Shown in pieces: positions 29,958-51,920 of a stretch of 64,000 nucleotides of DNA (within the stretch, counting starts at the first letter, position 1; each line of letters begins with the position of its first letter). A program made the translations under genes and the position numbers. The stretch covers positions 51,352-115,351 of the forward strand of contig CAJQUW010007257.1 in NCBI GenBank assembly GCA_907163375.1, read 5' to 3'. The DNA comes from Prostheceraeus crozeri (Eukaryota; Platyhelminthes; Polycladida; Euryleptidae). Below the pieces are notes generated by a model that was given only the letters and a program-made list of their open reading frames with translations, had not been told where the DNA came from and ran no database searches.

Positions 29958-29999
29958 AGTAGTAAGGAAGTGACAAACACCAGATAGCGCAAGATGGCC

Positions 30000-32160
30000 G
30001 CCATCGCTGAGTCCCCCCCCCTCTGGAACGGCAGAGTGTCGTGGTCGGCCGCCGTGGTGCTTCGGGTCTGAGTCCCCCCCCTCTGGAACGATAGAGTGTC
30101 GGTCGTGGTGGACTTGGGCGACCGCCAGGATTAGTCTTGAGGCTATAGTGTGTGATGTTTTTGGTGCAATCTGCTGAACGTTGGGTTGTAAAATGGGTTG
30201 TTTCGAGTGGAAGGAGTGGTCGGATGAGAAAACGGAGGTCGGATTCGTATTCAGCGTGAAATTCTGCATCGGTAGGGTGAGTTTCAAGGCAATCGGTGAG
30301 AAAAAATTTTCAACATTTTTCGAAAAACGACAGAGTTAGAATTTGGGACGTTTTGGTGTGTAGCGTCAAAACGAAGCATCGGATGAGAAAACGGAGATCA
30401 GATTCGGATTCAGCGTGAAATTCTGCATCGCTATGGTGAGTTTCAAGTCAATCGGAGAGAAAAAATTTTCGGCTGACGTCCCCCCCCCTCTGGACAGCTT
30501 GCTTCGATTTTGGCTTCCAGTGGACGGATTTTGTCGTGCGATAGCTCGTTTGAAAGCTAAGAGTGAGACAAATTCAGTGAAAGAATCGGCTTGTTCCTAT
30601 CTGTCTTCGTTCAAAAGTTAGAGCGGTTACAAGATTTTAGGTCGGAGCTCGCTTACCTGAAAAATCCTAAGTGTCAGAGTGACTTTGTATGGGTAAAATT
30701 TTGAAAATTTTCCAAAGTGTGGAATTTCGACCTGGGACCGTCACCAAAACATTTTTCATCAAATTTTGAAATTTCACTGACGTCCCCCCCCCTCTGGACA
30801 GCTTGCTTCGATTTTGGCTTCCAGTGGATGGATTTTGTCGTGCGATAGCTCGTTTGAAAGCTAAGAGTGAGACAAATTCAGTGAAAGAATCGGCTTGTTC
30901 CTATCTGTCTTCGTTCAAAAGTTAGAGCGGTTACAAGATTTTAGGTCGGAGCTCGCTTACCTGAAAAATCCTAAGTGTCAGAGTGACTTTGTATGGGTAA
31001 AATTTTGAAAATTTTCCAAAGTGTGGAATTTCGACCTGGGACCGTCACCAAAACATTTTTCATCAAATTTTGAAATTTCACTGACGTCTCCCCCCCTCTG
31101 GACAGCTTGCTTCGATTTTGGCTTCCAGTGGACGGATTTTGTCGTGCGATAGCTCGTTTGAAAGCTAAGAGTGAGACAAATTCAGTGAAAGAAACGGCTT
31201 GTTCCTATCTGTCTTCGTTCAAAAGTTAGAGCGGTTACAAGATTTTAGGTCGGAGCTCGCTTACCTGAAAAATCCTAAGTGTCAGAGTGGCTTTGTATGG
31301 GTAAAATTTTGAAAATTTTCCAAAGTGTGGAATTTCGACCTGGGACCGCCACCAAAACATTTTTCATCAAATTTCACTGACCTCCCCCCCCCTCTTGACA
31401 GCTTGCTTCGATTTTGGCTTCCAGTGGACGGATTTTGTCGTGCGATAGCTCGTTTGAAAGCTAAGAGTGAGACAAATTCAGTGAAAGAATCGGCTTGTTC
31501 CTATCTGTCTTCGTTCAAAAGTTAGAGCGGTTACAAGATTTTAGGTCGGAGCTCGCTCACCTGAAAAAATCCTAAGTGTCAGAGTGACTTTGTATGGGTA
31601 AAATTTTGAAAATTTTCCAAAGTGTGGAATTTCGACCTGAGACCGTCACCAAAACATTTTTCATCAAATTTTGAAATTTCACTGACGTCCCCCCCCCTCT
31701 GGACAGCTTGCTTCGATTTTGGCTTCCAGTGGACGGATTTTGTCGTGCGATAGCTCGTTTGAAAGCTAAGAGTGAGACAAATTCACTGAAAGAATCGGCT
31801 TGTTCGTATCTGTCTTCGTTTAGATGTGAGACGCCATTTAAGATTTTGGGACATTGGCGAAAAACGACAGAGTTAGAATTTGGGACGTTTTGGGCTGTAG
31901 CTTCAAAACGAAGCATCGGATGGGAAAACGGAGGCCAGATTTGGAATCAGCGTCAAATTCTTTATCTGTATGGTGAGTTTCATGTCAATCGGAGAGTTTC
32001 AAGTCAATCGGAGAGAAAAATTTTCAACATTTTTCGGAAAAACGAGTTAGAATTTTTGCGATGGCTGCCTACTGTAGAGCCAAAACGAAGCATCGGATGG
32101 GAAAACGGAGGCCAGATTCGGATTCAGCGTCAAATTCTACATGGAAATGGTGTATTTCCA
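30000..32160. repeat. Subterminal minisatellite with C-runs, left arm
   Basis: Five units of about 300 bp, each with a C-run followed by TCTGGACAGCTTGCTTCG (runs near 30480, 30784, 31086, 31386 and 31688), plus two terminal C-runs near 30015 and 30076 followed by TCTGGAACG. Reverse-complement relative of the element 1 array. Confidence 0.9.
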
Positions 32161-32220
32161 GCTCAATCGGAGCACTAGAACCGGCGATAGACGGGTTTTT
32201 TAGTGTTTGGATGATGGGTG

Positions 32221-32255
32221 TTACGTCATCAGCTGATCGCCACACACTATATAAG
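32221..32255 (+). promoter_or_regulatory. Gene A promoter, left arm
   Basis: TTACGTCATCAGCTG (32221-32235; CRE-like plus E-box) and TATATAAG (32248-32255), followed about 46 bp later by the leader-exon donor. Same layout as element 1. Confidence 0.7.
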
Positions 32256-32301
32256 CTGGGAACCGAGAGAGACTTGTCATTAAGACGAGAGATTGTCAAC
32301 G

Positions 32302-32998
32302 GTAAGTCGTCTCTCTGAGCTCCGATGATAGCTTCGGACATTCCAAATCCCGAGTTTCTGTAAGAAACCGACTTAGAAAATTTCATTGCTGATATCAGCT
32401 AAGGCGTCAGACTTAGAGGTTATCCAGGAGATGGCCTTCGTCTCCAGGCCATAAAAGACTCCAAAACTTTAAAGGCTTGTAACTTTGCTTCTACAAGTCC
32501 GTTTGACTTGATTCAAAAAAGGTTCGGTCGCTATTGACCTGGCCTAAGTGACAGACTACTTATAAAATTTCATAAGTAGTGCTAAAAAGTTGAAAAATTT
32601 AAATTCACTAGTTTTGGAGGTTTTCTGGGGTTTTCAAGTATGCTGAATTCAAATCTACTATCAGATTTCAAATTTAACTAAGTCTAAGGCAGCTTTGAGG
32701 GGTTAGATCCCAGCTACTGTTCACTACCTTTGACTCGGCGTTACTGTTACCACTTCGGGGCAGTGACAATGATGTCTTAAGCTGTAAATAGCGGGTATCG
32801 GGGAAGATCTCTCACTTCCCTAGTGATCAGTACAAGGCCTTCGGGCTGTCGACGGGATCTAGTGCCACTCACTACACTCAAATCTATCATCTCACTAAGT
32901 GTAAAATCATTCTTTTCCGTTTTTATAAACTAGGAATCAATCGTTTGCTATCAAACGTTTACGGAATTATAATCATTGTTTCCCCCTTTTCACTTCAG
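32302..32998 (+). other. Leader intron of gene A, left arm
   Basis: Donor CG|GTAAGT at 32302, acceptor CACTTCAG ending at 32998, length 697 bp. The gene A ATG follows at 33002. Confidence 0.7.
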
Positions 32999-33001
32999 AA
33001 A

Positions 33002-34335
33002 ATGGTTAACTACAATAATGCCAAGACGGCTTTCAAGCTCTGCGTTTGTGCAAAGATTTTTCGTAGTGACGCCTTCAAGAAACACTCTTGTGTAAATAAG
33101 CGAATGGTAGGGGGCATTCGATACTTTTGCAGCAGCCATAATGCATCTCGCCTTGTCGAGACGTTACCGGAGTGGCATGCGAAGCATAGCAGCTGCAGTC
33201 AACCAGAGCTGACTGAGGAGGCGAAGCAAAGTCTCTTCAGCTCAGAGTTAAAAGCTCTGGAGACTCAGTGCGCTGTCGAGGCTATCGCGTCACCAAAGCC
33301 TCCCTCATCTAGTGCACCAGCAAAGGCTCTCTCACCCACCCCGATTCTGGAGACTCAGTGTGCTGTCGAGTCTATCGCGTCAGCAGAGGTTCCTTCATCT
33401 AGCGTGCCAGCAAAGGCTCTCTCACCCACCCGATTGAGTCTTCTCCGAAGTCGAGTAAATCCTCCTCCTCCTCTAGCGATGAGTCGGCTACTAGTAGCAG
33501 CGACAGTGAGGAAGAGGAGGAGGAGGAAAAAGGCTCGACGAAGGCTGACCTAGTCGAGAGTGTCTACCTCGATAGCGAGGTAGAGGCGGTGAGGGAAGTT
33601 GACCTCGATAGCGAGGTGCAGCCGGCTAAGTTATCGAGCAGTGGTGGGATTGCGGCTCAATGTCGCAACTTCATTATGCGCCCACCACTGGTCGATAACT
33701 ATGACAAGTTGAAGAATGAGTTGGAGGTGTGGAAGAGGGACTGTTTCTTCTATAAAGCGAGTTCCGAGAACCTCTCGCGAGTCACTCAGGAGCTCAAGAA
33801 GACTCAAGCTAGTCTTTTTGAGAAAGAAGGAGAGCTCGATCGCGAGAGGTTCTCGCACCTCGCTAGTAAGGCTAGAGAAGAACAGCTCCTGATCGAGAGA
33901 GAGAGTCAAGAGAAGGAGTTGAGAAAGATGAGGGAGGAGTTGGAAGGGCTGCGAAAGCAGTTGGGGAAGGTGGTGGCGACTAATCAGGAGCTGCACCAAC
34001 AAGTGATGAGTAGCAGTACTCGACGATCAAGTCGCCTCCACATTCCCCTAGATAAGAAAGGACATGTGCCCGCAAGACCGCTCCTCTGTGAACGTGGCAG
34101 AGACTAAATGTGTTACAGCAGGGCTAAAAAAGGTATCGAATGCCTTCATTTTACATTCGACCATAAGGAGGCAATCACAGGATTCCTGTTCGAACCACGT
34201 CCGGAGAAGATCTGTAAGTTAAAACAAGTAACTTAGAGTTCAAGATGATAACTAACAACTTCTTTCTTTACAGATATCAAAGAGAAGCGTCCACCTGCTT
34301 CCGTCAACGAGCCGGAGGCGAAGCGGCAAGCTTGA
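33002..34335 (+). pseudogene. Gene A, left arm copy (frameshift and nonsense)
   Basis: Compared with the right-arm copy, one C is missing in the CACCC run at about 33430, which ends the first frame at 33553, and a nonsense TAA at 34105-34107 follows CERGRD. The N-terminal Cys/His module (KLCVCAKIF, FKKHSC, YFCSSH), a Ser/Pro-rich repeat (KALSPTP, twice), the coiled coil and exon 2 (34274-34335, after a 60-bp intron at 34214-34273) are otherwise recognisable. Confidence 0.85.
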
Positions 34336-34352
34336 GACCCATATTTTTTCAA

Positions 34353-34942
34353 TCATCCCGAGAATGAACCATCGGCTCTCTTAAGGGCCACCATGGGGCA
34401 AGACATGATAGAACCTCCTCGCGGTTTGCCCTGGGCAGTCTTCGGACTGGCGAATACTATCATTAAGTTGAATCTGCTATCAGTCAACTTGAACGTTGCA
34501 AATGAAGTTCGGTGTAATACTTCCTTTCGACGGGCGTTCCTGTAAAGGGCGGCGGTGAAACCCGTAGCTATGTATACCGCAAGGGACATTCGGCAATGGT
34601 CAATCTTGTTAAACCTCTCTGCGTCATGTTTGCAAGTGATTGCCTCTGTCTCAACGTAGTATGCATTCGCGCCAGGGCGACATTTAGCCAACTGTCGAAG
34701 GTTGCCTAAAACTTTCCATTGCATACGTTATGAGAACCATGAGTTCTACCTGTCTCTATCAATGAGACGAATTGATGAATGGATGAAATGGGAGGACACT
34801 CACGCGCCACACGCAACATAACACACTTCTCTCTTCCGTAGTCAAACAAGCTCTTTACACATGGATCGCAGTCGATTGCTATCCCTGTATCAGAAGTGTA
34901 AGCTATCTTAATTTTATTTAACACTATTTCATCTACCATCAT
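34353..34942 (-). CDS. Gene B, left arm copy, unknown function
   Basis: Two frames: a start part (MMVDEIVLNKIKIAYTSDTG, IDCDPCVKSL, ARECPP) and a second part (RQLAKCRPGANAYYV, CKHDAERFNKIDHC, LYRNARRKEVLH, KLTDSRFNLMIVFASP, ending DGSFSG). A 44-bp segment with GTAGAA at its 5' end and TTTTAG at its 3' end lies between them; removing it keeps the frame and removes the intervening stop. This suggests a very small intron and a protein of about 180 residues. The Cys/His residues may bind metal. The gene is convergent with gene A, 17 bp between the two stop codons. Confidence 0.6.
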
Positions 34943-34966
34943 CACCCATATGAAGTGTCATAAGAT

Positions 34967-35570
34967 TTACAAGTTAGACTAAGCGTTCTACTATTTGTAA
35001 ATGAAAGATATAGTTTCACCAGTTTACAAGTTAAAAATAAAGTTTCAATAGTGTGTACGTTAGAAATAAAGTTTTAGCTGTTTGTATATCAAAAACAAAG
35101 TTTCAAGAGTTTACAAGTTAGACTAAGCGTTCTACTATTTGTAAATGAAAGATATAGTTTCACCAGTTTACAAGTTAAAAATAAAGTTTCAATAGTGTGT
35201 ACGTTAGAAATAAAGTTTTAACTGTTTGTATATCAAAAACAAAGTTTCAAGAGTTTACAAGTTAAAAAATAAAGTTTCAATGGTGTATACGTTAGAAATA
35301 AAGTTTTAGCTGTTTGTATATCAAAATAAAGTTTCAAGAGTTTACAAGTTAGAAATAACGTTTCAATAGTGTATGCGTTAGAAATAAAGTTTTAGCTGTT
35401 TGTATATCAAAATAAAGTTTCAAGAGTTTACAAGTTAGAAATAAAGATTCAATAGTGTGTATGTTAGAAATAAAGGTATAACTGTTTGTAAAAATAAGAT
35501 CGCAAGATTTACTAGTTTACAAGTTAGACTAAGTGTAAATTAAAATAAAATTATAACTGTTCACGAGTTA
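34967..35570 (+). repeat. Short AT-rich satellite block, left arm
   Basis: The same family as the 1-7602 array, with GTTAGAAATAAAGTTTTAGC and GTTTACAAGTTA halves and the marker TTACAAGTTAGACTAAGCG. It separates gene B (minus) from the D and C genes (plus). Confidence 0.9.
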
Positions 35571-35872
35571 AAGCGTTGATGCAACGATGAACAATTAATA
35601 AGCTGAAAAGTTTTAGATTCACTTTAACATTACCATATGTTTACAGATAGAAATGTATCACAGCAAAGCTACTTCATGAGTTAGTTTGCCAGGAGTGTAT
35701 CATCTCAAACTTTTACTCCGTCGTTGAAATTTCATGACGACTTTTTGCTAGACGAAAGTTAACACCAGAGGAGCGCAGGGGTGGGTGGCTTAAAATACGC
35801 CTACAGCACTGAGAGAGTTGGAGTGCATGAGCTATGTACATTCTTTTGACGACGAGAGGAGCGATTTAGCCG
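35571..35872. other. Upstream region of ORF D, left arm
   Basis: About 300 bp without repeats. CTTAAAATACG at about 35788 corresponds to CATAAAATACG in the right arm, a possible TATA box. An alternative short frame opens at ATG 35827 (MSYVHSFDDERSDLADG) and runs 50 codons in another frame. Confidence 0.4.
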
Positions 35873-36265
35873 ATGGCGCAGGTAGTTTCCCAGAGCATGG
35901 AGGACATTGTTTAGGTGACTCTAAGGACGTATGTCGAGCTGCCTTCAGTGATAGGCTTCCAACTCATGATGAATGATGATATGCTTACGACCTACATTCA
36001 ACCATTGGTGTATGCCCACACCCTCCCCCACAACGAGCTTGTCTGCCACATTGTATTCATGAGTGTGGCTCAAAGTAGGAAATTGATTGATGAGACTTTG
36101 CTGAAATATCCAAGGCGCGTATTCAAGCATGGTCGCCTACTGTTGGAGTATTATTATCAATGGCGCGACGACACACATTTGCCCACCCGTGTTTTACCAC
36201 ACCTATCAACGGAAGAATACAATAGAGCTTTAGTCGAGACGGTGAAAGGAGACGATGAGCGCTAG
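35873..36265 (+). CDS. ORF D, left arm, unknown, 5' end unresolved
   Basis: From the ATG at 35873 (MAQVVSQSMEDIV) an in-frame TAG (35912-35914) precedes a clean stretch of 116 codons ending in TAG at 36263-36265. This stretch has VELPSVIGFQLM, HNELVCHIVFMSVAQSR, FKHGRLLLEYYYQW and HLSTEEYNRAL, and looks like a folded helical protein. Its real start may be an internal ATG (35966) or a spliced or shifted 5' part. Both arms carry the same structure. Not recognised. Confidence 0.4.
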
Positions 36266-36354
36266 CGGGTGAATGAAGCATCGGTGAGAGTGGGAATCAA
36301 CTTGATGCTATTCTCCAATGAGGATTGTTGTCTAATGAGAATCAAGCATTCCTT

Positions 36355-36362
36355 TATGAATA
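36355..36362 (+). promoter_or_regulatory. Gene C TATA box, mutated in left arm
   Basis: TATGAATA here; the right arm has TATAAATA at the mirror position (45708-45715). It lies about 100 bp before the gene C ATG. Confidence 0.6.
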
Positions 36363-36460
36363 GAGAGCCTTCCACAGTGAGAATCATTCCATCGTTGAAT
36401 CGTACAAGTGGCGGACGCACATTCTCTCTCTCTACATCCCTGTTATATTATCCAACTAAA

Positions 36461-37235
36461 ATGGTAAGTCGCTACTTTCCTCCCTCTCCTCCCTTGAACG
36501 TAAACTTAATACAATCTTTTTTATTTTCAGGCATCTTCTACATCTGCTGCACTAGTAGGACAAAATGGTGGCCAGACGTTACAAGGTTCGCTACAATCAG
36601 ATCATCTACAGCTGAGACCAGTGGAAGAAACAACAAAGGTACATAATCCTACACCGCTACAGCGTAAATTTAAACAAGTCTTGCGTCATGAGGATCACAG
36701 CGTAGTACTGCGAACGGGAATGCTCCCTTCCACTGATGTGAAGATATTGAGCAATCAGTATGGGGATTACATACTCATCCCCGTGAGTCCGTACATTCGC
36801 CACCAACTTGACATTATTGAAGAGTACATAACATTAAATATGGACATTCCTACTCCTCTTGCTCAAGAGTGGAAGGCGAGAGATGAAAAGGATACTCCCT
36901 ATAGAAGGATTTGGGATGGCAATCAAATTTGCCTACCATTATCACATTGGTGTAGTTATTATAAAAAGGATGGAGATCAATCAATACCCATCAGATGTGA
37001 TGAGCTCGGAGAAGGTACTTGGGATATCATTTTCAAAGTGAATGGACTATATTATGGTCAGCACAAGGATAACAAAATAGCCTCTCTCTCGATATACACT
37101 GAATCCATCCTATATATTCCAAAACCACCCAGCGTAGATGACATTATTGACGAAATCCTTAACGGGGATGGTACGAAGCGCAAGTCGGGCAAGAATGCTA
37201 CTTCCAAACGCAAGTCAAGGAAAGAGAATTGCTAA
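36461..37235 (+). CDS. Gene C, left arm: spliced, possible DNA-binding protein
   Basis: The first coding exon ends exactly at the ATG (36461-36463), then a 67-bp intron (36464-36530, GTAAGT...TTTTCAG), then exon 2 from 36531 (ASSTSAALVGQ) to 37235, about 236 residues. The same ATG|GTAAGT design is seen in polB. The core has YGDYILIPVSPYIRHQLD, WKARDEKDTPYRRIWDG, ICLPLSHWCSYY, GTWDIIFKVNGLYYG and SILYIPKPPSVDDIIDEIL, with a basic tail (KRKSGK, KRKSRKENC). A GTWDIIFKVNGLYY beta segment followed by a PPSVDD tail reminds me of viral single-stranded-DNA-binding proteins with an OB fold; this is weak. The basic tail suggests nucleic-acid binding or nuclear import. Confidence 0.65.
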
Positions 37236-37269
37236 TCCTTTCCTAACTCTACCCTATGACAATTCGCTT

Positions 37270-37395
37270 ATGTGCTTTGAGTGTCGTGGACGTGGTCTTA
37301 TTAGATACATTTTACTTCTTCGTTGCCATCATATCATTTGTGTATTTTGTCGTGAAAAGCATCGATGTAATTCTTCATTTTGTGATATGTTATAG
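37270..37395 (+). CDS. Small Cys/His ORF, left arm
   Basis: 41 codons with CFECRGRGL, LRCHHIICVFC, HRC and FCDML, i.e. CxxC...CHH...CxxC...C, like a small zinc ribbon or half RING. It may be an exon joined to neighbouring gene C or to the exonuclease gene, since it has no promoter of its own. Identical in both arms. Confidence 0.35.
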   Translation: MCFECRGRGLIRYILLLRCHHIICVFCREKHRCNSSFCDML

Positions 37396-37446
37396 AACGT
37401 TTCCTTAGATGTGTAATTTACGTTTTAGGCTTCTATCATCATTTTT

Positions 37447-37977
37447 ATGGATTGTGAAGGTGAACCTGTGCAGGAGCTCAGTGCTATTGCTATGAACAAT
37501 TGGACATATCAGATTGTTAGTGTCTATCATCAACATGCCAACTGCGATCCCAATGTTGATCAATGGGCGAGAAAACACATTCATGGACTTAATCTGAAAT
37601 ATTTGCAAGACTATGGCTTTTCTTGTGAGACTGCTCTTCTTATTGACTTTAAACGATGGTTAGCTGCTTTCAATGTTATACGCATTTTTTGTAATAATCC
37701 TGGTAAGGAGAGGAAAGTATTTCCCAATCTAGTCATTAATGATATTTTGCTCCCACCTTGGGATAGTAGAGTGAATCAACACTATCATGAAGTCACGAAA
37801 CGTTTTAAGGATTTGTGTGTTCCTATTTTGTCAGTTCGTTGTAGTAGCTACGTACATAACCAATGCTTCTTTCCTCCTTACCTCAACACTGCCAAAGTCC
37901 TATATGGTTATCATTGCTCGCTATATGACAGTTACCAGCTGTATCTATTTTATCTGTTTCAAACCATTGATTTGTAA
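37447..37977 (+). CDS. DEDDh-type (DnaQ-like) exonuclease, left arm
   Basis: 176 codons. Exo I is DCE at residues 2-4 (MDCEGEPVQEL); a KHIHGLN motif at 43-49; a possible Exo II FCNNPGKE with Glu88 in the acidic place; Exo III HCSLYDS with His156 and Asp161 (HxSxxD). These fit a DEDDh 3'-5' exonuclease fold, with a non-standard Exo II. The frame is open upstream to an acceptor-like TTTTAG (37428), adding a hydrophobic IIIF that would complete the first beta strand, so a 5' exon is likely. It could act in replication or processing of DNA ends; the role is inferred. Confidence 0.65.
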   Translation: MDCEGEPVQELSAIAMNNWTYQIVSVYHQHANCDPNVDQWARKHIHGLNLKYLQDYGFSCETALLIDFKRWLAAFNVIRIFCNNPGKERKVFPNLVINDILLPPWDSRVNQHYHEVTKRFKDLCVPILSVRCSSYVHNQCFFPPYLNTAKVLYGYHCSLYDSYQLYLFYLFQTIDL

Positions 37978-37999
37978 TGCATGCTTGTTACAGTTATTC

Positions 38000-41022: not shown

Positions 41023-41029
41023 TGTCAGG

Positions 41030-43934
41030 ACTACACACATTTGATTTACAAAACATGCTTTGAATTTTCATACGATGAAGTCCTTACTTTCATTTATTTC
41101 TAACGTACACACTGTTGAAACTTTATTTTTCAACTTGTAAACTGTTGAAACTTTATTTTGTTTCTAACATATAAACAGCTAAAACTTTATTTCTAACGTA
41201 CACACTGTTGAAACTTTATCTTTAACTTGTAAACGGCTGAAACTTTATTTCTAACGCGATTCTATCATGTCAGGACTATACACATTTGATTTACAAAACA
41301 TGCTTTGAATACTCATACGATGAAGTTCTTACTTTCATTTATTTCTAACGTACACACTGTTGAAACTTTATTTTTCAACTTGTAAACTGTTGAAACTTTA
41401 TTTCTAACGTACACACTGTTGAAACTTTATTTTTAATTTGTAAACGGCTGAAACTTTATTTCTAACGCACAAAGCGCTTAAACTTTATTTCCATCATACA
41501 CACTATTGAAACTTTATTTTAATCTGTAAACTGTTGAAACGATATTTTCATTTACAACTAGTAGAATGCTGAGTCTAACTTGCAAACTAGTAAATCCTAC
41601 GATCAAACTTTACAAACAGATAAAACTTTATTTCTAACGTAGACACTGTTGAAACTTTATTTTAACTTGTAAACGGTTGAAACTTTATTTCTAACGTACA
41701 CACTATTGAAACTTTATTTTTAATTTGTAAACTGGTGAAACTTCATTTTATTTCTAACATACAAGCTGATAAAACTTTATTCTTAACTTGTAAACTGGCG
41801 AAGCTTCATTTTATTTCTAACATACAAACAGATAAAACTTTATTCTTAACATACGCACTATTGAAACATTAGTTTTAACTCGCAAACTATTGAAACTTTA
41901 TTTTTAACTTGTTAACGGTTGAAACTATGTTTTATTTCTAACATACAAACAGATAAAACTTTATTTTTAACTTGTAAACTGATGAACCTTCATTTTATTT
42001 CTAACATACAGACAGATAGAACTTTATTCTTAACATACACACTATTGAAACTTTATTTTTAACGTGTTAACTATTGAAACTTTATTTTTTAACTTGTAAA
42101 TCGGTGAAACTTTATTTTATTTCTAACATACAAGCAGATAAAATTTATTCTTAACTTGTAAACTGGTGAACCTTCATTTTATTTCTAACATATAAACAGA
42201 TAGAACTTTATTCTTAACATACACACTATTGAAACTTTATTTTTAACTTGTAAACGGCTGAAACTTTATTTCTAACGCACAAAGCGTTTAAACATTATTT
42301 CCATCATACACACTATTGAAACTTTATTTTTAACTTGTTAACGGTTGAAACTTTGTTTTATTTCTAACATACAAACAGATAAAACTTTATTCTTAACATA
42401 CACACTATTGAAACTTTATTTCTAACATACACACTATTGAAACTTTATTTTTTAACTTGTAAACTGGTGAAACTTTATTTCATTTCTAGCATACAAGCAG
42501 ATAAAATTTATTCTTAACTTGTAAACTGGCGAAACTTCATTTTATTTCTAACATATAAACAGATAGAACTTTATTCTTAACATACACACTATTGAAACTT
42601 TATTCTTAACTTTTAAACTGGTGAAACTTTATTCTTAACTTTTAAACTGGTGAAACTTTATTTCATTTCTGACATGCAAGCAGATAAAACTTTATTCTTA
42701 ACTTGTAAACTGGTGAACCTTCATTTTTATTTCTAACATCTAAACAGATAGAACTTTATTCTTAACATACACACTATTGAAACTTTATTTTTAACGTGTT
42801 AACTATTGAAACTTTATTTTTAACTTGTAAACGGTTGAAACTTTGTCTTAATTCTAACATACAAACAGATAAAACTTTATTCTTAACATACACACTATTG
42901 AAACTTTATTTCTAACATACACACTATTGAAACTTTATTCTTAACTTGTAAACTGGTGAACCTTTATTTTTATTTCTAACATATAAACAGATAGAACTTT
43001 ATTCTTAACGTACACACTGTTGAAACTTTATTTTTAACTTGTAAACGGCTGAAACTTTATTTCTAACGCACAAAGCGCTTAAACTTTATTTCCATCATAC
43101 ACACTATTGAAACTTTATTTTAATCTGAAACTTTATTTTTAACTTGTTAACGGTTGAAACTTTGTTTTATTTCTAACATACAAACAGATAAAACTTTATT
43201 CTTAACATACACACTATTGAAACTTTATTTCTAACATACACACTATTGAAACTTTATTTTTAACTTTTAAACTGGTGAAACTTTATTTCATTTCTAGCAT
43301 ACAAGCAGATAAAACTTTATTCTTAACTTGTAAACTGGTGAACCTTTATTTTTATTTCTAACATATAAACAGATAGAACTTTATTCTTAACGTACACACT
43401 GTTGAAACTTTATTTTTAACTTGTAAACGGCTGAAACTTTATTTCTAACGCACAAAGCGCTTAAACTTTATTTCCATCATACACACTATTGAAACTTTAT
43501 TTTAATCTGAAACTTTATTTTTAACTTGTTAACGGTTGAAACTTTATTTTATTTCTAACACAAAAAAAGCTTAAACTTTATTTTTAACATATACACTATT
43601 GAAACTTTATTTTGTAATCTGTAAACTGTTGAAACTATATCTTTCATTTACAAATAGTGGAACGCTTAGTCTAACTTACAAACTATTTAATCCCGCAATC
43701 TTATTTTTACAAACAGATGTAACTTTATTTCTAACGTACACACTGTTGAAACTTTAATTTTAACTTGTAAACTCTTGAAACTTTATTTTATTTCTAACAT
43801 AGAAACAGCTTAAACTTTATTTCTAACACATACACTATTGAAACTTTATTTTTAATCTGTAAACTGTTGAAACTATATCTTTTTTTTACAAATAATAGAA
43901 CGCTTAGTCTAACTTGCAAACTAGTAAATCTTAT
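41030..43934 (-). repeat. AT-rich satellite array, right arm
   Basis: Mirror of 38136-40984 with about 71 bp net extra. AATAAA is on the minus strand. It holds 80-bp block copies at about 41023-41096 and 41256-41340. Confidence 0.95.
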
Positions 43935-44064
43935 TCGTCATCAAATCTAACTGTTTAAATCTTCATCATGGAAATCAATGTTTCACAGTCATTTGAAAAA
44001 GATATGATCACCCTTCATCTAACCCATCCGTTGCATGATAACAACAACTCTTCGCATAATAACA

Positions 44065-44070
44065 TTTATT
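44065..44070 (-). terminator. Polyadenylation signal after the exonuclease gene, right arm
   Basis: AATAAA on the minus strand, mirror of 38000-38005. Confidence 0.5.
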
Positions 44071-44092
44071 GAATAACTGTAACAAGCATGCA

Positions 44093-44623
44093 TTACAAAT
44101 CAATGGTTTGAAACAGATAAAATAGATACAGCTGGTAACTGTCATATAGCGAGCAATGATAACCATATAGGACTTTGGCAGTGTTGAGGTAAGGAGGAAA
44201 GAAGCATTGGTTATGAACGTAGCTACTACAACGAACAGACAAAATAGGAACACACAAATCCTTAAAACGTTTCGTGACTTCATGATAGTGTTGATTCACT
44301 CTACTATCCCAAGGTGGGAGCAAAATATCATTAATGACTAGATTGGGAAATACTTTCCTCTCCTTACCAGGATTATTACAAAAAATGCGTATAACATTGA
44401 AAGCAGCTAACCATCGTTTAAAGTCAATAAGAAGAGCAGTCTCACAAGAAAAGCCATAGTCTTGCAAATATTTCAGATTAAGTCCATGAATGTGTTTTCT
44501 CGCCCATTGATCAACATTGGGATCGCAGTTGGCATGTTGATGATAGACACTAACAATCTGATATGTCCAATTGTTCATAGCAATAGCACTGAGCTCCTGC
44601 ACAGGTTCACCTTCACAATCCAT
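44093..44623 (-). CDS. DEDDh-type exonuclease, right arm
   Basis: The 176-codon frame is identical in protein to the left-arm copy, with the same DCE, HIHGLN and HCSLYDS motifs and the same acceptor-like TTTTAG upstream. No change separates the two copies, in contrast to gene A, which suggests recent duplication or selection. Confidence 0.65.
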   Translation of the reverse strand: MDCEGEPVQELSAIAMNNWTYQIVSVYHQHANCDPNVDQWARKHIHGLNLKYLQDYGFSCETALLIDFKRWLAAFNVIRIFCNNPGKERKVFPNLVINDILLPPWDSRVNQHYHEVTKRFKDLCVPILSVRCSSYVHNQCFFPPYLNTAKVLYGYHCSLYDSYQLYLFYLFQTIDL

Positions 44624-44674
44624 AAAAATGATGATAGAAGCCTAAAACGTAAATTACACATCTAAGGAAACGTT

Positions 44675-44800
44675 CTATAACATATCACAAAATGAAGAAT
44701 TACATCGATGCTTTTCACGACAAAATACACAAATGATATGATGGCAACGAAGAAGTAAAATGTATCTAATAAGACCACGTCCACGACACTCAAAGCACAT
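44675..44800 (-). CDS. Small Cys/His ORF, right arm
   Basis: Mirror of 37270-37395, identical in sequence: CFEC, CHHIICVFC, HRC, FCDML. Confidence 0.35.
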   Translation of the reverse strand: MCFECRGRGLIRYILLLRCHHIICVFCREKHRCNSSFCDML

Positions 44801-44834
44801 AAGCGAATTGTCATAGGGTAGAGTTAGGAAAGGA

Positions 44835-45609
44835 TTAGCAATTCTCTTTCCTTGACTTGCGTTTGGAAGTAGCATTCTTGCCCGACTTGCGCTTCGTACC
44901 ATCCCCGTTAAGGATTTCGTCAATAATGTCATCTACGCTGGGTGGTTTTGGAATATATAGGATGGATTCAGTGTATATCGAGAGAGAGGCTATTTTGTTA
45001 TCCTTGTGCTGACCATAATATAGTCCATTCACTTTGAAAATGATATCCCAAGTACCTTCTCCGAGCTCATCACATCTGATGGGTATTGATTGATCTCCAT
45101 CCTTTTTATAATAACTACACCAATGTGATAATGGTAGGCAAATTTGATTGCCATCCCAAATCCTTCTATAGGGAGTATCCTTTTCATCTCTCGCCTTCCA
45201 CTCTTGAGCAAGAGGAGTAGGAATGTCCATATTTAATGTTATGTACTCTTCAATAATGTCAAGTTGGTGGCGAATGTACGGACTCACGGGGATGAGTATG
45301 TAATCCCCATACTGATTGCTCAATATCTTCACATCAGTGGAAGGGAGCATTCCCGTTCGCAGTACTACGCTGTGATCCTCATGACGCAAGACTTGTTTAA
45401 ATTTACGCTGTAGCGGTGTAGGATTATGTACCTTTGTTGTTTCTTCCACTGGTCTCAGCTGTAGATGATCTGATTGTAGCGAACCTTGTAACGTCTGGCC
45501 ACCATTTTGTCCTACTAGTGCAGCAGATGTAGAAGATGCCTGAAAATAAAAAAGATTGTATTAAGTTTACGTTCAAGGGAGGAGAGGGAGGAAAGTAGCG
45601 ACTTACCAT
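44835..45609 (-). CDS. Gene C, right arm: spliced, possible DNA-binding protein
   Basis: ATG at 45609-45607 directly followed by a 67-bp intron (45540-45606), then exon 2 from 45539 to 44835. The protein is the same as in the left arm. This copy has an intact TATAAATA box (45708-45715), so it is the better candidate for expression. The features described for the left copy (beta-rich core, basic tail) apply. Confidence 0.65.
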
Positions 45610-45707
45610 TTTAGTTGGATAATATAACAGGGATGTAGAGAGAGAGAATGTGCGTCCGCCACTTGTACGATTCAACGATGGAATGATTCTCACTGTGGAA
45701 GGCTCTC

Positions 45708-45715
45708 TATTTATA
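45708..45715 (-). promoter_or_regulatory. Gene C TATA box, right arm
   Basis: TATAAATA on the minus strand, about 100 bp before the ATG. The left arm has TATGAATA. Confidence 0.65.
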
Positions 45716-45804
45716 AAGGAATGCTTGATTCTCATTAGACAACAATCCTCATTGGAGAATAGCATCAAGTTGATTCCCACTCTCACCGATGCTTCATTCA
45801 CCCG

Positions 45805-46197
45805 CTAGCGCTCATCGTCTCCTTTCACCGTCTCGACTAAAGCTCTATTGTATTCTTCCGTTGATAGGTGTGGTAAAACACGGGTGGGCAAATGTGTGTC
45901 GTCGCGCCATTGATAATAATACTCCAACAGTAGGCGACCATGCTTGAATACGCGCCTTGGATATTTCAGCAAAGTCTCATCAATCAATTTCCTACTTTGA
46001 GCCACACTCATGAATACAATGTGGCAGACAAGCTCGTTGTGGGGGAGGGTGTGGGCATACACCAATGGTTGAATGTAGGTCGTAAGCATATCATCATTCA
46101 TCATGAGTTGGAAGCCTATCACTGAAGGCAGCTCGACATACGTCCTTAGAGTCACCTAAACAATGTCCTCCATGCTCTGGGAAACTACCTGCGCCAT
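45805..46197 (-). CDS. ORF D, right arm, unknown
   Basis: Mirror of 35873-36265 with the same two in-frame TAG codons. The upstream TATA-like CATAAAATACG (about 46275) is better than the left-arm version. Confidence 0.4.
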
Positions 46198-46499
46198 CGG
46201 CTAAATCGCTCCTCTCGTCGTCAAAAGAATGTACATAGCTCATGCACTCCAACTCTCTCAGTGCTGTAGGCGTATTTTATGCCACCCACCCCTACGCTCC
46301 TCTGGTGTTAACTTTCGTCTAGCAAAAAGTCGTCATGAAATTTCAACGACGGAGTAAAAGTTTGAGATGATACACTCCTGGCAAACTAACTCATGAAGTA
46401 GCTTTGCTGTGATACATTTCTATCTGTAAACATATGGTAATGTTAAAGTGAATCTAAAACTTTTCAGCTTATTAATTGTTCATCGTTGCATCAACGCTT

Positions 46500-47104
46500 T
46501 AACTCGTGAACAGTTATAATTTTATTTTAATTTACACTTAGTCTAACTTGTAAACTAGTAAATCTTGCGATCTTATTTTTACAAACAGTTATACCTTTAT
46601 TTCTAACATACACACTATTGAATCTTTATTTCTAACTTGTAAACTCTTGAAACTTTATTTTGATATACAAACAGCTAAAACTTTATTTCTAACGCATACA
46701 CTATTGAAACGTTATTTCTAACTTGTAAACTCTTGAAACTTTATTTTGATATACAAACAGCTAAAACTTTATTTCTAACGTATACACCATTGAAACTTTA
46801 TTTTTTAACTTGTAAACTCTTGAAACTTTGTTTTTGATATACAAACAGTTAAAACTTTATTTCTAACGTACACACTATTGAAACTTTATTTTTAACTTGT
46901 AAACTGATGAAACTATATCTTTCATTTACAAATAGTAGAACGCTTAGTCTAACTTGTAAACTCTTGAAACTTTGTTTTTGATATACAAACAGCTAAAACT
47001 TTATTTCTAACGTACACACTATTGAAACTTTATTTTTAACTTGTAAACTGGTGAAACTATATCTTTCATTTACAAATAGTAGAACGCTTAGTCTAACTTG
47101 TAAA
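46500..47104 (-). repeat. Short AT-rich satellite block, right arm
   Basis: Mirror of 34967-35570, between ORF D and gene B. Confidence 0.9.
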
Positions 47105-47127
47105 TCTTATGACACTTCATATGGGTG

Positions 47128-47717
47128 ATGATGGTAGATGAAATAGTGTTAAATAAAATTAAGATAGCTTACACTTCTGATACAGGGATAGCAATCGACT
47201 GCGATCCATGTGTAAAGAGCTTGTTTGACTACGGAAGAGAGAAGTGTGTTATGTTGCGTGTGGCGCGTGAGTGTCCTCCCATTTCATCCATTCATCAATT
47301 CGTCTCATTGATAGAGACAGGTAGAACTCATGGTTCTCATAACGTATGCAATGGAAAGTTTTAGGTAACCTTCGACAGTTGGCTAAATGTCGCCCTGGCG
47401 CGAATGCATACTACGTTGAGACAGAGGCAATCACTTGCAAACATGACGCAGAGAGGTTTAACAAGATTGACCATTGCCGAATGTCCCTTGCGGTATACAT
47501 AGCTACGGGTTTCACCGCCGCCCTTTACAGGAACGCCCGTCGAAAGGAAGTATTACACCGAACTTCATTTGCAACGTTCAAGTTGACTGATAGCAGATTC
47601 AACTTAATGATAGTATTCGCCAGTCCGAAGACTGCCCAGGGCAAACCGCGAGGAGGTTCTATCATGTCTTGCCCCATGGTGGCCCTTAAGAGAGCCGATG
47701 GTTCATTCTCGGGATGA
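47128..47717 (+). CDS. Gene B, right arm copy, unknown function
   Basis: ATG at 47128 (MMVDEIV). A likely 44-bp intron at 47321-47364 (GTAGAA...TTTTAG) joins two frames in phase 1; its last three bases are the TAG that would otherwise end the first frame. Product about 180 residues with IDCDPC, ECPP, KCRPGANAYY, CKHDAERF and SRFNLMIVFASP. The stop at 47717 is followed 17 bp later by the stop of gene A on the other strand. 44 bp is short for a metazoan intron, so two separate small ORFs remain possible. Confidence 0.6.
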
Positions 47718-47734
47718 TTGAAAAAATATGGGTC

Positions 47735-49069
47735 TCAAGCTTGCCGCTTCGCCTCCGGCTCGTTGACGGAAGCAGGTGGACGCTTCTCTTTGATATCTGT
47801 AAAGAAAGAAGTTGTTAGTTATCATCTTGAACTCTAAGTTACTTGTTTTAACTTACAGATCTTCTCCGGACGTGGTTCGAACAGGAATCCTGTGATTGCC
47901 TCCTTATGGTCGAATGTAAAATGAAGGCATTCGATACCTTTTTTAGCTCTGCTGTAACACATTTCGTCTCTGCCACGTTCACAGAGGAGCGGTCTTGCGG
48001 GCACATGTCCTTTCTTATCTAGGGGAATGTGGAGGCGACTTGATCGTCGAGTACTGCTACTCATCACTTGTTGGTGCAGCTCCTGATTAGTCGCCACCAC
48101 CTTCCCCAACTGCTTTCGCAGCCCTTCCATCTCCTCCCTCATCTTTCTCAACTCCTTCTCTTGACTCTCTCTCTCGATCAGGAGCTGTTCTTCTTTAGCC
48201 TTACTAGCGAGGTGCGAGAACCTCTCGCGATCGAGCTCTCCTTCTTTCTCAAAAAGACTAGCTTGAGTCTTCTTGAGCTCCTGAGTGACTCGCGAGAGGT
48301 TCTCGGAACTCGCATTATAGAAGAAACAGTCCCTCTTCCACACCTCCAACTCATTCTTCAACTTGTCATAGTTATCGACCAGTGGTGGGCGCATAATGAA
48401 GTTGCGACATTGAGCCGCAATCCCACCACTGCTCGATAACTTAGCCGGCTGCACCTCGCTATCGAGGTCAACTTCCCTCACCGCCTCTACCTCGCTATCG
48501 AGGTAGACACTCTCGACTAGGTCAGCCTTCGTCGAGCCTTTTTCCTCCTCCTCCTCTTCCTCACTGTCGCTGCTACTAGTAGCCGACTCATCGCTAGAGG
48601 AGGAGGAGGATTTACTCGACTTCGGAGAAGACTCAATCGGGGTGGGTGAGAGAGCCTTTGCTGGCACGCTAGATGAAGGAACCTCTGCTGACGCGATAGA
48701 CTCGACAGCACACTGAGTCTCCAGAATCGGGGTGGGTGAGAGAGCCTTTGCTGGTGCACTAGATGAGGGAGGCTTTGGTGACGCGATAGCCTCGACAGCG
48801 CACTGAGTCTCCAGAGCTTTTAACTCTGAGCTGAAGAGACTTTGCTTCGCCTCCTCAGTCAGCTCTGGTTGACTGCAGCTGCTATGCTTCGCATGCCACT
48901 CCGGTAACGTCTCGACAAGGCGAGATGCATTATGGCTGCTGCAAAAGTATCGAATGCCCCCTACCATTCGCTTATTTACACAAGAGTGTTTCTTGAAGGC
49001 GTCACTACGAAAAATCTTTGCACAAACGCAGAGCTTGAAAGCCGTCTTGGCATTATTGTAGTTAACCAT
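47735..49069 (-). CDS. Gene A, right arm copy, intact
   Basis: ATG at 49069, exon 1 to 47857, 60-bp intron 47797-47856, exon 2 47796-47735, about 424 residues. Order: Cys/His module (KLCVCAKIF, FKKHSC, YFCSSH, WHAKHSSC), two Ser/Pro repeats (ETQCAVE, KALSPTP), a Ser run and an acidic stretch, FIMRPPLVD, a long coiled coil (about residues 245-345), SSRLHIPL, CERGRD, a cysteine segment CYSRAKKGIECLHFTFDH and a basic tail. It is longer than the element 1 copy in the Ser/Pro part. As the end-proximal gene in all copies it may be an architectural or end-binding protein; that is inference. Confidence 0.8.
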
Positions 49070-49072
49070 TTT

Positions 49073-49769
49073 CTGAAGTGAAAAGGGGGAAACAATGATT
49101 ATAATTCCGTAAACGTTTGATAGCAAACGATTGATTCCTAGTTTATAAAAACGGAAAAGAATGATTTTACACTTAGTGAGATGATAGATTTGAGTGTAGT
49201 GAGTGGCACTAGATCCCGTCGACAGCCCGAAGGCCTTGTACTGATCACTAGGGAAGTGAGAGATCTTCCCCGATACCCGCTATTTACAGCTTAAGACATC
49301 ATTGTCACTGCCCCGAAGTGATAACAGTAACGCCGAGTCAAAGGTAGTGAACAGTAGCTGGGATCTAACCCCTCAAAGCTGCCTTAGACTTAGTTAAATT
49401 TGAAATCTGATAGTAGATTTGAACTCAGCATACTTGAAAACCCCAGAAAACCTCCAAAACTAGTGAATTTAAATTTTTCAACTTTTTAGCACTACTTATG
49501 AAATTTTATAAGTAGTCTGTCACTTAGGCCAGGTCAATAGCGACCGAACCTTTTTTGAATCAAGTCAAACGGACTTGTAGAAGCAAAGTTACAAGCCTTT
49601 AAAGTTTTGGAGTCTTTTATGGCCTGGAGACGAAGGCCATCTCCTGGCTAACCTCTAAGTCTGACGCCTTAGCTGATATCAGCAATGAAATTTTCTAAGT
49701 CGGTTTCTTACAGAAACTCGGGATTTGGAATGTCCGAAGCTATCATCGGAGCTCAGAGAGACGACTTAC
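49073..49769 (-). other. Leader intron of gene A, right arm
   Basis: GTAAGT donor at 49769, TTCAG acceptor at 49073, 697 bp, mirror of 32302-32998. Confidence 0.7.
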
Positions 49770-49815
49770 CGTTGACAATCTCTCGTCTTAATGACAAGTC
49801 TCTCTCGGTTCCCAG

Positions 49816-49850
49816 CTTATATAGTGTGTGGCGATCAGCTGATGACGTAA
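49816..49850 (-). promoter_or_regulatory. Gene A promoter, right arm
   Basis: TATATAAG (49816-49823) and TTACGTCATCAGCTG (49836-49850) on the minus strand. Confidence 0.7.
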
Positions 49851-49929
49851 CACCCATCATCCAAACACTAAAAAACCCGTCTATCGCCGGTTCTAGTGCT
49901 CCGATTGAGCTGGAAATACACCATTTCCA

Positions 49930-51880
49930 TGTAGAATTTCACGCTGATTCCAAATCTGAAATCCGTTTTCCAATCCGATGCTTCGTTTTGAAGCGACAGC
50001 CCAAAACGTCCCAAATTCTAACTCTGTCGTTTTTCGCCAATGTCCCAAAATCTTAAATGGCGTCTCACATCTAAACGAAGACAGATATGAACAAGCCGAT
50101 TCTTTCAGTGAATTTGTCTCACTCTTAGCTTTCAAACGAGCTATCGCACGACAAAATCCGTCCACTGGAAGCCAAAATCGAAGCAAGCTGTCCAGAGGGG
50201 GGGGAGGTCAGTGAAATTTGATGAAAAATGTTTTGGTGACGGTCCCAGGTCGAAATTCCACACTTTGGAAAATTTTCAAAATTTTACCCATAGAAAGTCA
50301 CTCTGACACTTAGGATTTTTTCAGGTAAGCGAGCTCCGACCTAAAATCTTGTAACCGCTCTAACTTTTGAACGAAGACAGATAGGAACAAGCCGATTCTT
50401 TCACTGAATTTGTCTCACTCTTAGCTTTCAAACGAGCTATCGCACGACAAAATCCGTCCACTGGAAGCCAAAATCGAAGCAAGCTGTCCAGAGGGGGGGG
50501 GAGGTCAGTGAAATTTGATGAAAAATGTTTCGGTGGCGGTCCCAGGTCGAAATTCCACACTTTGGAAAATTTTCAAAATTTTACCCATACAAAGTCACTC
50601 TGACACTTAGGATTTTTTCAGGTAAGCGAGCTCCGACCTAAAATCTTGTAACCGCTCTAACTTTTGAACGAAGACAGATAGGAACAAGCCGATTCTTTCA
50701 CTGAATTTGTCTCACTCTTAGCTTTCAAACGAGCTATCGCACGACAAAATCCGTCCACTGGAAGCCAAAATCGAAGCAAGCTGTCCAGAGGGGGGGGACG
50801 TCAGTGAAATTTCAAAATTTGATGAAAAATGTTTTGGTGACGGTCCCAGGTCGAAATTCCACACTTTGGAAAATTTTCAAAATTTTACCCATACAAAGTC
50901 ACTCTGACACTTAGGATTTTTCAGGTAAGCGAGCTCCGACCTAAAATCTTGTAACCGCTCTAACTTTTGAACGAAGACAGATAGGAACAAGCCGATTCTT
51001 TCACTGAATTTGTCTCACTCTTAGCTTTCAAACGAGCTATCGCACGACAAAATCCGTCCACTGGAAGCCAAAATCGAAGCAAGCTGTCCAGAGGGGGGGG
51101 ACGTCAGTGAAATTTGATGAAAAATGTTTTGGTGACGGTCCCAGGTCGAAATTCCACACTTTGGAAAATTTTCAAAATTTTACCCATACAAAGTCACTCT
51201 GACACTTAGGATTTTTCAGGTAAGCGAGCTCCGACCTAAAATCTTGTAACCGCTCTAACTTTTGAACGAAGACAGATAGGAACAAGCCGATTCTTTCACT
51301 GAATTTGTCTCACTCTTAGCTTTCAAACGAGCTATCGCACGACAAAATCCGTCCACTGGAAGCCAAAATCGAAGCAAGCTGTCCAGAGGGGGGGGGGACG
51401 TCAGCCGAAAATTTTTTCTCTCCGATTGACTTGAAACTCACCATAGCGATGCAGAATTTCACGCTGAATCCGAATCTGATCTCCGTTTTCTCATCCGATG
51501 CTTCGTTTTGACGCTACACACCAAAACGTCCCAAATTCTAACTCTGTCGTTTTTCGAAAAATGTTGAAAATTTTTTCTCACCGATTGCCTTGAAACTCAC
51601 CCTACCGATGCAGAATTTCACGCTGAATACGAATCCGACCTCCGTTTTCTCATCCGACCACTCCTTCCACTCGAAACAACCCATTTTACAACCCAACATT
51701 CAGCAGATTGCACCAAAAACATCACACACTATAGCCTCAAGACTAATCCTGGCGGTCGCCCAAGTCCACCACGACCGACACTCTATCGTTCCAGAGGGGG
51801 GGGGACTCAGACCCGAAGCACCACGGCGGCCGACCACGACACTCTGCCGTTCCAGAGGGGGGGGGACTCAGCGATGGCGG
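49930..51880. repeat. Subterminal minisatellite with G-runs, right arm
   Basis: Five G-run units (near 50197, 50495, 50792, 51091 and 51394) plus two terminal runs near 51797 and 51856 (CCAGA, G-run, ACTCAG). About 193 bp present at the start of the left array is missing here at 49931. Confidence 0.9.
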
Positions 51881-51920
51881 CCATCTTGCGCTATCTGGTG
51901 TTTGTCACTTCCTTACTACT

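What the first reader, a model, noticed from the sequence alone, without database searches (positions are those of the whole stretch)
29958..51920. A Polinton-like transposon that is almost a perfect 22-kb palindrome
Seen: matching AGTAGTAAGG/CCTTACTACT ends, a perfect GGCCTG duplication, and two full-length inverted arms with a 46-bp centre, both carrying the same gene set. Known: Polintons have terminal inverted repeats of usually hundreds of bp to about 1 kb, 6-bp target duplications and protein-primed PolB; other protein-primed linear genomes (adenoviruses) can give palindromic defective forms. Inference: this is an integrated palindromic, defective-type genome, mobilised by PolB and integrase from elements such as element 1.
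Basis: partly seen in the sequence, partly recalled or inferred. Interest (0 to 1): 0.88.

Follow-up and report, generated by a model that had tools for sequence, protein, structure and literature searches.

The report
Palindromic Polinton satellite transposon family
The 22-kb mirror-image element is one copy of a young family of virus-like jumping DNA whose two halves stay matched to each other, as if each new copy passes through a folded hairpin, and it seems to live off normal relatives that carry the copying and inserting genes.

Summary
Window 29958-51920 is a mobile element with two inverted arms (10,740 aligned bases, 42 substitutions), a 46-bp centre, AGTAGTAAGG/CCTTACTACT ends and a perfect GGCCTG duplication. 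An empty site with one GGCCTG exists on another contig of the same assembly.

It is not a one-off defective genome. All 8 further centre loci I fetched (of 39 listed) are palindromes. The genome holds 268 exact intact centres (248 asymmetric, 10 + 10 symmetric) and 982 half-centres. The common centre has no spacer: it is a hairpin-forming dyad with a 4-nt asymmetry. The window's 46-bp spacer is a variant.

The arms tend to evolve together. On average, arms of one element differ less than like arms of different elements (3.4 against 7.9-9.4 substitutions per 2.66 kb; permutation p 7e-5), and both arms carry the same allele of a terminal gene in 7 of 7 testable elements, yet the asymmetry beside the dyad persists. 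A self-complementary hairpin replication intermediate explains this best.

In the pieces examined the palindromes lack PolB, integrase and other core genes, which same-ended elements carry. The family is best read as a non-autonomous Polinton satellite. Hairpin replication and trans-mobilisation are inferred, not shown.

The parts
29952..29957 (.). Left copy of the 6-bp target duplication GGCCTG
   Evidence: single copy in the empty site
29958..51920 (.). Whole palindromic element
29958..40978 (+). Left arm, 11,021 nt
40979..41024 (.). 46-bp centre, a variant of the family's spacer-less asymmetric dyad
41025..51920 (-). Right arm, 10,896 nt, 99.61% identical to the left arm over aligned columns
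51921..51926 (.). Right copy of GGCCTG
30473..31820 (+). 304-bp tandem array in the left terminal region
50074..51404 (-). 297-bp tandem array in the right terminal region
32792..34107 (+). Gene A, left arm, split over two reading frames (ORFs 32792-33553 and 33403-34107)
47834..49279 (-). Gene A, right arm, 481-codon open frame; coiled-coil-like by eye, no Pfam family above cut-off
36510..37235 (+). Gene X, left arm (241 codons)
44835..45560 (-). Gene X, right arm (241 codons), identical protein
37429..37977 (+). ORF Y, left arm (182 codons), found in all 17 palindrome pieces
44093..44641 (-). ORF Y, right arm
38185..40913 (+). 29-bp-unit A+T-rich tandem arrays, left arm, next to the centre
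41086..43883 (-). 29-bp-unit tandem arrays, right arm
1..24851 (-). Right part of element 1, a separate PolB-bearing Polinton with TSD ATGGTG; continues left of the window to C6038:25475
9060..12892 (-). PolB of element 1, broken into two ORFs in this copy

Best explanation
The element belongs to a family of non-autonomous, whole-length palindromic satellites of a recently active Polinton lineage. SHOWN: it is integrated with a 6-bp duplication; it is multicopy with one common dyad centre; its arms tend to evolve in concert; the core genes tested are absent from the pieces examined; non-palindromic elements with the same ends carry such genes. INFERRED: the helper's protein-primed PolB starts at the shared terminus and displaces a 22-kb strand. 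Because that strand is self-complementary, it snaps back into an 11-kb hairpin whose open end is a normal origin. While it is a hairpin, mismatch repair (or re-copying from one strand) makes the two arms alike, except for the few unpaired bases beside the loop, which escape repair. PolB then copies round the loop to give the 22-kb duplex palindrome, which the helper's integrase inserts. After insertion the arms drift independently, and host repair often removes or alters one side of the unstable dyad, as in the window copy.
For: Family: 40 of 40 scored centre loci match the centre on both strands; 8 of 8 fetched further copies are palindromic. Exact centres: 248 a/b, 10 b/b, 10 a/a. Half-centres 982 and ends 1006, control 0 in both. 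Concerted arms: within-element mean 3.4 substitutions against a-a 9.4 and b-b 7.9, permutation p 7e-5; among 61 convergent gene X pairs 41 have identical scores; of the 37 with an arm below 556.4 bits 18 are identical, shuffle maximum 6 in 20,000; one stop of the same kind in both arms at C6884 and at C12241 (positions not compared); gene A allele the same in both arms in 7 of 7 testable elements although their gene X can be identical. Loop escape: centre-flank haplotype equal in 13 of 15 loci while 248 of 268 exact dyads are asymmetric; a natural centre (L010) folds as ssDNA at -31.8 kcal/mol, z -11.3, with the asymmetry as a bulge. Satellite: PolB, INT, ATPase-like, protease-like, cap428, mid367 and mid232 found in 0 of 17 palindrome pieces, gene X and ORF Y in 17 of 17; same-ended elements carry PolB or INT. 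Mobility: perfect 6-bp TSD in 12 of 13 testable elements; empty site.
Against: No extrachromosomal hairpin or 22-kb linear form has been seen. The concerted arms could come from ordinary gene conversion. The concert is not universal: of 18 arms in the gene X test the partner arm is strictly nearest for 7, tied for 8 (mostly zero distances) and not nearest for 3 (one arm each of C13643, C12873 and C8061); within-element distances run from 0 to 14. Two of the 8 further copies have less similar arms with gaps counted (C10300 94.0%, C8061 91.7%). At C8061 only one arm carries a stop in gene X. Persistence of the asymmetric loop could be selection rather than escape from repair. The window's own centre folds only weakly (z -2.1, 6 of 200 shuffles as good). 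A second empty site (C1146) was sought and not found; its flanks are repetitive. That the helper acts in trans rests on shared ends only. The centre searches favour palindromes by design.
Confidence: 0.6

Rival explanations
1. Chromosomal gene conversion: the palindrome arose once and is copied as a unit; after insertion the arms convert each other, as in the large palindromes of the human Y chromosome (recalled).
For: Explains shared substitutions within an element and pairs of equal scores, and also why some pairs are not homogenised.
Against: Copies whose gene X arms have no substitutions between them (020b, 024a/b, 026a/b, 030a/b) differ in gene A allele, yet each is homozygous for it. Conversion of a divergent block of 1-2 kb in every copy with no accompanying divergence would have to be very fast. 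Conversion should also have made most centres symmetric, but 248 of 268 exact ones are a/b.
Confidence: 0.2
2. Repeated formation: palindromes are made anew, again and again, by fold-back of a half-length precursor at one hairpin-prone site, so the arms are alike because they are freshly made.
For: Gives matching arms and one shared centre at once. One-sided half-centres followed by sequence I did not identify exist (L066, L068).
Against: I have no half-length precursor (none was specifically searched for). The same 4-nt asymmetry in 248 copies must then pre-exist in the precursor's hairpin end, which makes this nearly the hairpin model.
Confidence: 0.13
3. Single origin with independent arms: one palindromisation, then plain copying of the 22-kb unit with no exchange between arms.
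For: One shared asymmetric centre; 3 of 18 arms are nearer to another element than to their partner.
Against: On average arms of one element are closer to each other than like arms of different elements, p 7e-5; gene A alleles concordant in 7 of 7.
Confidence: 0.04
4. Assembly artefact (hairpin reads or mis-joined haplotypes).
For: Large palindromes are a known weak point of assembly (recalled).
Against: The two flanks differ and carry one duplication outside the arms; the arms differ by 42 substitutions and 16 gap events; an empty site exists; the same structure occurs at many loci.
Confidence: 0.03

Closest known systems
Polintons / Mavericks (vertebrate set in PMC8097293; passages seen)
   Same: 6-bp target duplications; (AGT)2//(ACT)2 ends; relatives with family-B polymerase and rve integrase.
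   Different: There intact elements have TIRs of 46-1,447 bp (mean 402) and seven or eight conserved ORFs. Here the inverted repeats take up the whole element and no core gene was found.
Foldback-like transposons, e.g. Galileo (PMC4168063; passages seen)
   Same: Very long terminal inverted repeats.
   Different: Galileo is a P-superfamily element with 7-8-bp duplications. Here the ends and duplications are Polinton-type, and the arms carry genes found in a Polinton relative.
AAV snapback genomes (PMC8235507; abstract and section 3.1 read)
   Same: Self-complementary subgenomic molecules that fold on themselves.
   Different: Particle genomes of a parvovirus population; nothing read there makes them a genomic family. 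Here hundreds of integrated loci share one centre.
Poxvirus concatemer junction / flip-flop hairpin ends (PMC8956199; abstract and passages seen)
   Same: An imperfect inverted repeat that is a duplex junction in one state and a mismatched hairpin in the other.
   Different: Poxviruses have a resolvase and two hairpin ends. I identified no resolvase here (not specifically searched for), and only one hairpin end would exist.
Yeast killer-plasmid hairpin/palindrome forms (Kikuchi 1985; only the title seen in a reference list; content recalled), Streptomyces long palindromes and adenovirus palindromic DNA (recalled)
   Same: Protein-primed linear replicons that yield palindromes and hairpins.
   Different: Laboratory or deletion products, as recalled; not a multicopy integrated transposon family.

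Membership tests
Polinton/Maverick (as non-autonomous member) | 6-bp target site duplication | tested here: met
   Window GGCCTG; perfect in 12 of 13 testable elements, including 3 of the 4 known to have a palindromic centre (window, C662, C1146; C674 5 of 6 bases). C1191 untestable (contig end); C14126 (one end) and C9726 (neither end) lack the exact end motif and were dropped
Polinton/Maverick (as non-autonomous member) | Terminal inverted repeats with AGT-type ends shared with a coding family | tested here: met
   AGTAGT.../...ACTACT at the window element and at elements with PolB, INT or the coding middle piece; motif reported in PMC8097293
[quoted passage not shown]
   0 of 17 palindrome pieces. 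Present in related elements: motifs (consensus recalled); homologues with PF03175; Pfam itself finds no polymerase domain in the 1270-aa copy. Protein priming itself not tested
Polinton/Maverick (autonomous) | Retroviral-type integrase | tested here: not met
   0 of 17 palindrome pieces. Present in element 1 left arm, PF00665 4.9e-10, and in L036
Polinton/Maverick (autonomous) | Packaging ATPase, capsid-maturation protease, capsid proteins | tested here: not met
   0 of 17 for the L036 candidates. In L036 the labels are themselves weak: A32 0.026, C48 protease 0.001, both below cut-off; 428-aa protein no Pfam match
Foldback element | Inverted repeats over most of the length | tested here: met
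Hairpin-ended replicon | Covalently closed hairpin molecule | not testable with these tools
   needs DNA from the organism
Hairpin-ended replicon | Imperfect dyad able to form a mismatched hairpin | tested here: met
   canonical centre: (first sequence); the window's own variant folds only weakly

The most novel reading that the evidence does not exclude
The free form is an 11-kb hairpin replicon with one protein-capped open end and one covalently closed end; the 22-kb palindrome is its integrated dimer. The conserved 4-nt asymmetry is the unpaired part of its hairpin end, passed on as a structure. This would be a protein-primed virus-like satellite with a hairpin telomere that colonises a eukaryotic genome.
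Probability: 0.22. Interest if true: 0.93.

Novelty: new variant of a known kind. Interest (0 to 1): 0.8.

Why it matters
It turns a supposed by-product (palindromic defective genomes of protein-primed replicons) into a heritable, successful transposon family, and it gives sequence-level evidence, readable in any good assembly, about how integrated Polintons replicate. A survey with a TIR ceiling (100 bp-8 kb in PMC12220804; passages seen) would miss such elements, so they may be commoner than thought.

Tried and rejected
Palindrome as a unique event: rejected. Shared 46-bp centre: rejected. Two Polintons inserted head to head: rejected, because no inner termini were seen and there is only one outer duplication. 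Element 1 as direct parent: its right half shares 30220-32924, 34198-35012 and the 29-bp arrays with the palindrome, but the gene X/ORF Y region 35600-38100 has no match in its right half, L017 or L018, and only its first 121 bp match L019. Gene X function: no Pfam, NCBIfam or PDB match and one PHROG match at E 0.04; six relatives at 46-88% identity, on contigs without names, and none in viral contigs. ORF Y: no Pfam match. PF00665 search of the genome: 150 hits scored of 21,684 candidates; I could not tie them to these elements. C1146 empty site not found. Literature listings searched for palindromic Polintons: (listings read, up to 20 papers each; none describes such a family; the library holds open-licence papers only). 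The adintovirus listing was not followed up. In one search the second sequence, meant to be the window's centre, was mistyped by me; its result is withdrawn and replaced, which reads the window itself.
Full report
1. THE OBSERVATION. The window is the last 64 kb of contig C6038 (G000:C6038:51352-115351) in a 2.05-Gb assembly of 14,165 contigs; the organism was not identified. Element 29958-51920 has inverted arms of 11,021 and 10,896 nt around a 46-nt centre; 10,740 columns align with 42 substitutions and 16 gap events. GGCCTG flanks both ends. Joining the flanks in silico and searching the assembly finds C6287:37858-38098 at 99%, with a single GGCCTG. The insertion is therefore real, and it is absent from another contig of the same assembly. 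That contig is probably the other haplotype, but I did not compare flanks beyond 281 bases; a second, 87% match lies elsewhere on C6287.

2. A FAMILY. The 461-bp terminal probe has 2,263 candidate sites, of which 40 were scored. A 251-bp centre probe has 892 candidates; all 40 scored loci, the window included, match on both strands, i.e. are palindromic at the centre. This probe favours palindromes. I fetched 8 of the 39 other loci over 10 kb on each side: all 8 are palindromes. Arm identity with gaps counted, for the largest block of each: 99.78% (C13643), 99.17% (C12873), 99.84% (C11061), 99.65% (C10362), 94.0% (C10300), 99.53% (C8253), 91.7% (C8061), 99.68% (C8050); several have arm-specific gaps between blocks.

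3. THE CENTRE. In the copies first read (L010-L016) the dyad is ...AATCAAATGAACTTGACAAACG|CGTTTGTCAAGCTTGATT..., with no spacer and a 4-nt asymmetry ('a' and 'b' halves) 11 bp from the dyad. As single-stranded DNA, 78 nt of L010 fold at -31.8 kcal/mol, z -11.3, with the asymmetry as a bulge; 68 nt of the window's variant fold at -9.1, z -2.1, with 6 of 200 shuffles as good. Whole-genome exact counts: 248 a/b, 10 b/b, 10 a/a (symmetric patterns are hit once per strand). Half-centres number 982, control 0. Of the 100 half-centre rows listed, 68 form 34 pairs (31 a/b, 2 b/b, 1 a/a) and 32 are unpaired. I fetched 20 centres: 2 symmetric ones and 18 of the 32 unpaired. Of those 18, 8 still have a recognisable second half (L051, L053, L054, L060, L061, L063, L064, L065) and 10 have lost it. 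Of the 10, L058 runs into terminal-type tandem repeat and L062 into the 3' end of gene X, several into the 29-bp array, and L066 and L068 into sequence I did not identify (my reading of the printed sequences). One-sided loss beginning near the dyad is what repair of an unstable palindrome would give. My pattern required one intact half, so this is not an unbiased sample.

4. ARMS TEND TO EVOLVE TOGETHER. (a) In 2,660 bp around gene X, nine elements (18 arms): within-element mean 3.4 substitutions (3, 8, 0, 0, 1, 0, 14, 0, 5); a-a between elements 9.4; b-b 7.9; a-b between elements 8.7; permutation p 7e-5. C10300 and C8050 arms each differ by at least 4 from every other element but by 1 and 0 from each other. 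Not all arms behave so: the partner is strictly nearest for 7 of 18 arms, tied for 8 and not nearest for 3. If the palindrome arose once and the arms were independent, within-element distance could not be the smallest on average. (b) Gene X protein search: 150 hits scored of 14,106 candidates, on 87 contigs. They form 61 convergent pairs within 20 kb (median spacing 7.9 kb), no same-strand pair, one divergent pair, and 28 hits left over. Scores are identical in 41 of 61 pairs. Of the 37 pairs with at least one arm below 556.4 bits, 18 are identical, against a maximum of 6 in 20,000 shuffles. Both arms at C6884 carry one TAA and both at C12241 one TGA (positions not compared); at C8061 only one arm carries a TAG. 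(c) Gene A occurs as two alleles, A (window) and B (element 1), 43% identical as proteins. Both arms have the same allele in 7 of 7 elements testable on both arms: A in the window, C13643 and C10362; B in C11061, C10300, C8253 and C8050. C12873 has neither allele in either fetched arm; C8061 is B on one arm, the other not covered. Gene X arms of C11061, C10362 and C8253, and one arm of C13643, have no substitutions between them, so the alleles became homozygous without measurable divergence in gene X. (d) The 25-nt haplotype beside the dyad is equal in both arms in 13 of 15 loci where the script read both. The exceptions are one private substitution in L065 and the window, whose motif is cut by its centre variant. 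So the arms are alike right up to the few bases at the hairpin tip, which are not.

5. THE HELPERS. The 24-nt end motif has 1,006 exact copies, control 0. In the 100 rows listed I count 18 convergent pairs, 18.2-30.4 kb apart, 15 of them 21.8-24.4 kb. Three of the 18 (C662, C674, C1146) contain an exact half-centre. The middles of three others (C236, C276, C132) are non-palindromic, coding and 98.8-99.8% alike. PolB: 48 loci were scored of 34,334 candidates, and 45 have no stop in the match. One natural 1270-aa copy has family-B exonuclease and polymerase motifs (consensus recalled). Pfam gives it only Endonuclease_7 above cut-off, but some of its homologues at about 54-61% identity carry PF03175. 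Element 1 (C6038:25475-76202; TSD ATGGTG) has inverted arms of several kb and an integrase domain in its left arm (PF00665, 4.9e-10). Locus L036 (C8440, TSD GTCAAA) shows, inward from the same end: gene X, ORF Y, a basic protein with a weak adenovirus protein X match, an ATPase-like protein, integrase (85-92% identical to that of element 1, in two frames, with a chromodomain), a 428-aa protein that may be a capsid protein, and an Ulp1/adenain-like protease (labels weak except integrase and chromodomain). Of the proteins tested, only gene X and ORF Y are in the palindromes: 17 of 17 pieces against 0 of 17 for each of seven core candidates (the pieces other than the window reach 10 kb from each centre, so the outermost part of longer arms was not seen). 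Gene X dN/dS against L036 is 0.068/0.264 and ORF Y 0.012/0.130, one pair each, with no correction for lineage, so these genes have been under constraint in at least one lineage.

6. TARGET DUPLICATIONS. Perfect in 12 of 13 testable elements; C674 5 of 6; C1191 ends at the contig end; C14126 and C9726 were dropped because one end and both ends lack the exact motif. A second empty site (C1146) was not found.

7. MECHANISM. What is shown: a mobile palindrome family, arms that tend to match, an unmatched loop, no core gene found. What is inferred: the hairpin intermediate and supply of PolB and integrase in trans. A self-complementary strand displaced by protein-primed replication can snap back; the hairpin exposes the normal origin; heteroduplex repair homogenises the arms and spares the loop. 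This one step accounts for observations 3 and 4 together. Gene conversion in the chromosome accounts for 4a and 4b, but poorly for 4c and for 248 asymmetric against 20 symmetric centres. The similar total length of palindromes and coding elements (about 21-24 kb) may reflect a packaging or replication limit; PMC8097293 suggests a constrained size in vertebrate Mavericks (passage), but this was not tested here.

8. NOVELTY. Components are known: Polintons, foldback-type repeats, snapback satellites, hairpin ends. A heritable, multicopy, whole-length palindromic Polinton family was not in the listings searched. I rate it a new variant of a known kind.

Searches were made to check the draft. They replaced a mistyped fold, gave the arm-by-arm neighbours, compared the two gene A proteins directly and tested gene X against the left half of element 1.

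Noticed in passing
L018:4995-6677 (element 1 left arm) and window 14619-15731: In element 1 the integrase ORF (561 aa) ends in the same 255-aa tail (99.2%) as the gene A protein of its other arm, so the inverted repeat boundary lies inside both genes and makes a fused integrase. L036's integrase ends in a chromodomain instead.
   Followed up: partly
L017:7227-9605: 793-aa ORF with reverse transcriptase and a weak GIY-YIG match, Penelope-like in make-up (class recalled), within the span of element 1.
   Followed up: no
window 20356-23857: Non-LTR retrotransposon-like insertion (RVT_1, 7e-25; class recalled) in the right terminal region of element 1.
   Followed up: no
window 27057-28175: A small separate near-palindrome: arms of 451 bp, 99% complementary, 217 bp apart.
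   Followed up: no
window 63842-64000: Contig end in a 56-bp satellite that contains CCCTAA telomere-type repeats.
   Followed up: no
G000:C1154:69392-69416 and 71356-71380; L066, L068: A third half-centre type (AATCAAACTTGACAAACGCG) followed by sequence I did not identify; at C1154 two such halves point outward 2 kb apart. Could be an older or precursor form.
   Followed up: partly
L003 (G000:C9729:1502-2518): Two terminal regions face each other about 95 bp apart, so two element ends lie close together.
   Followed up: no
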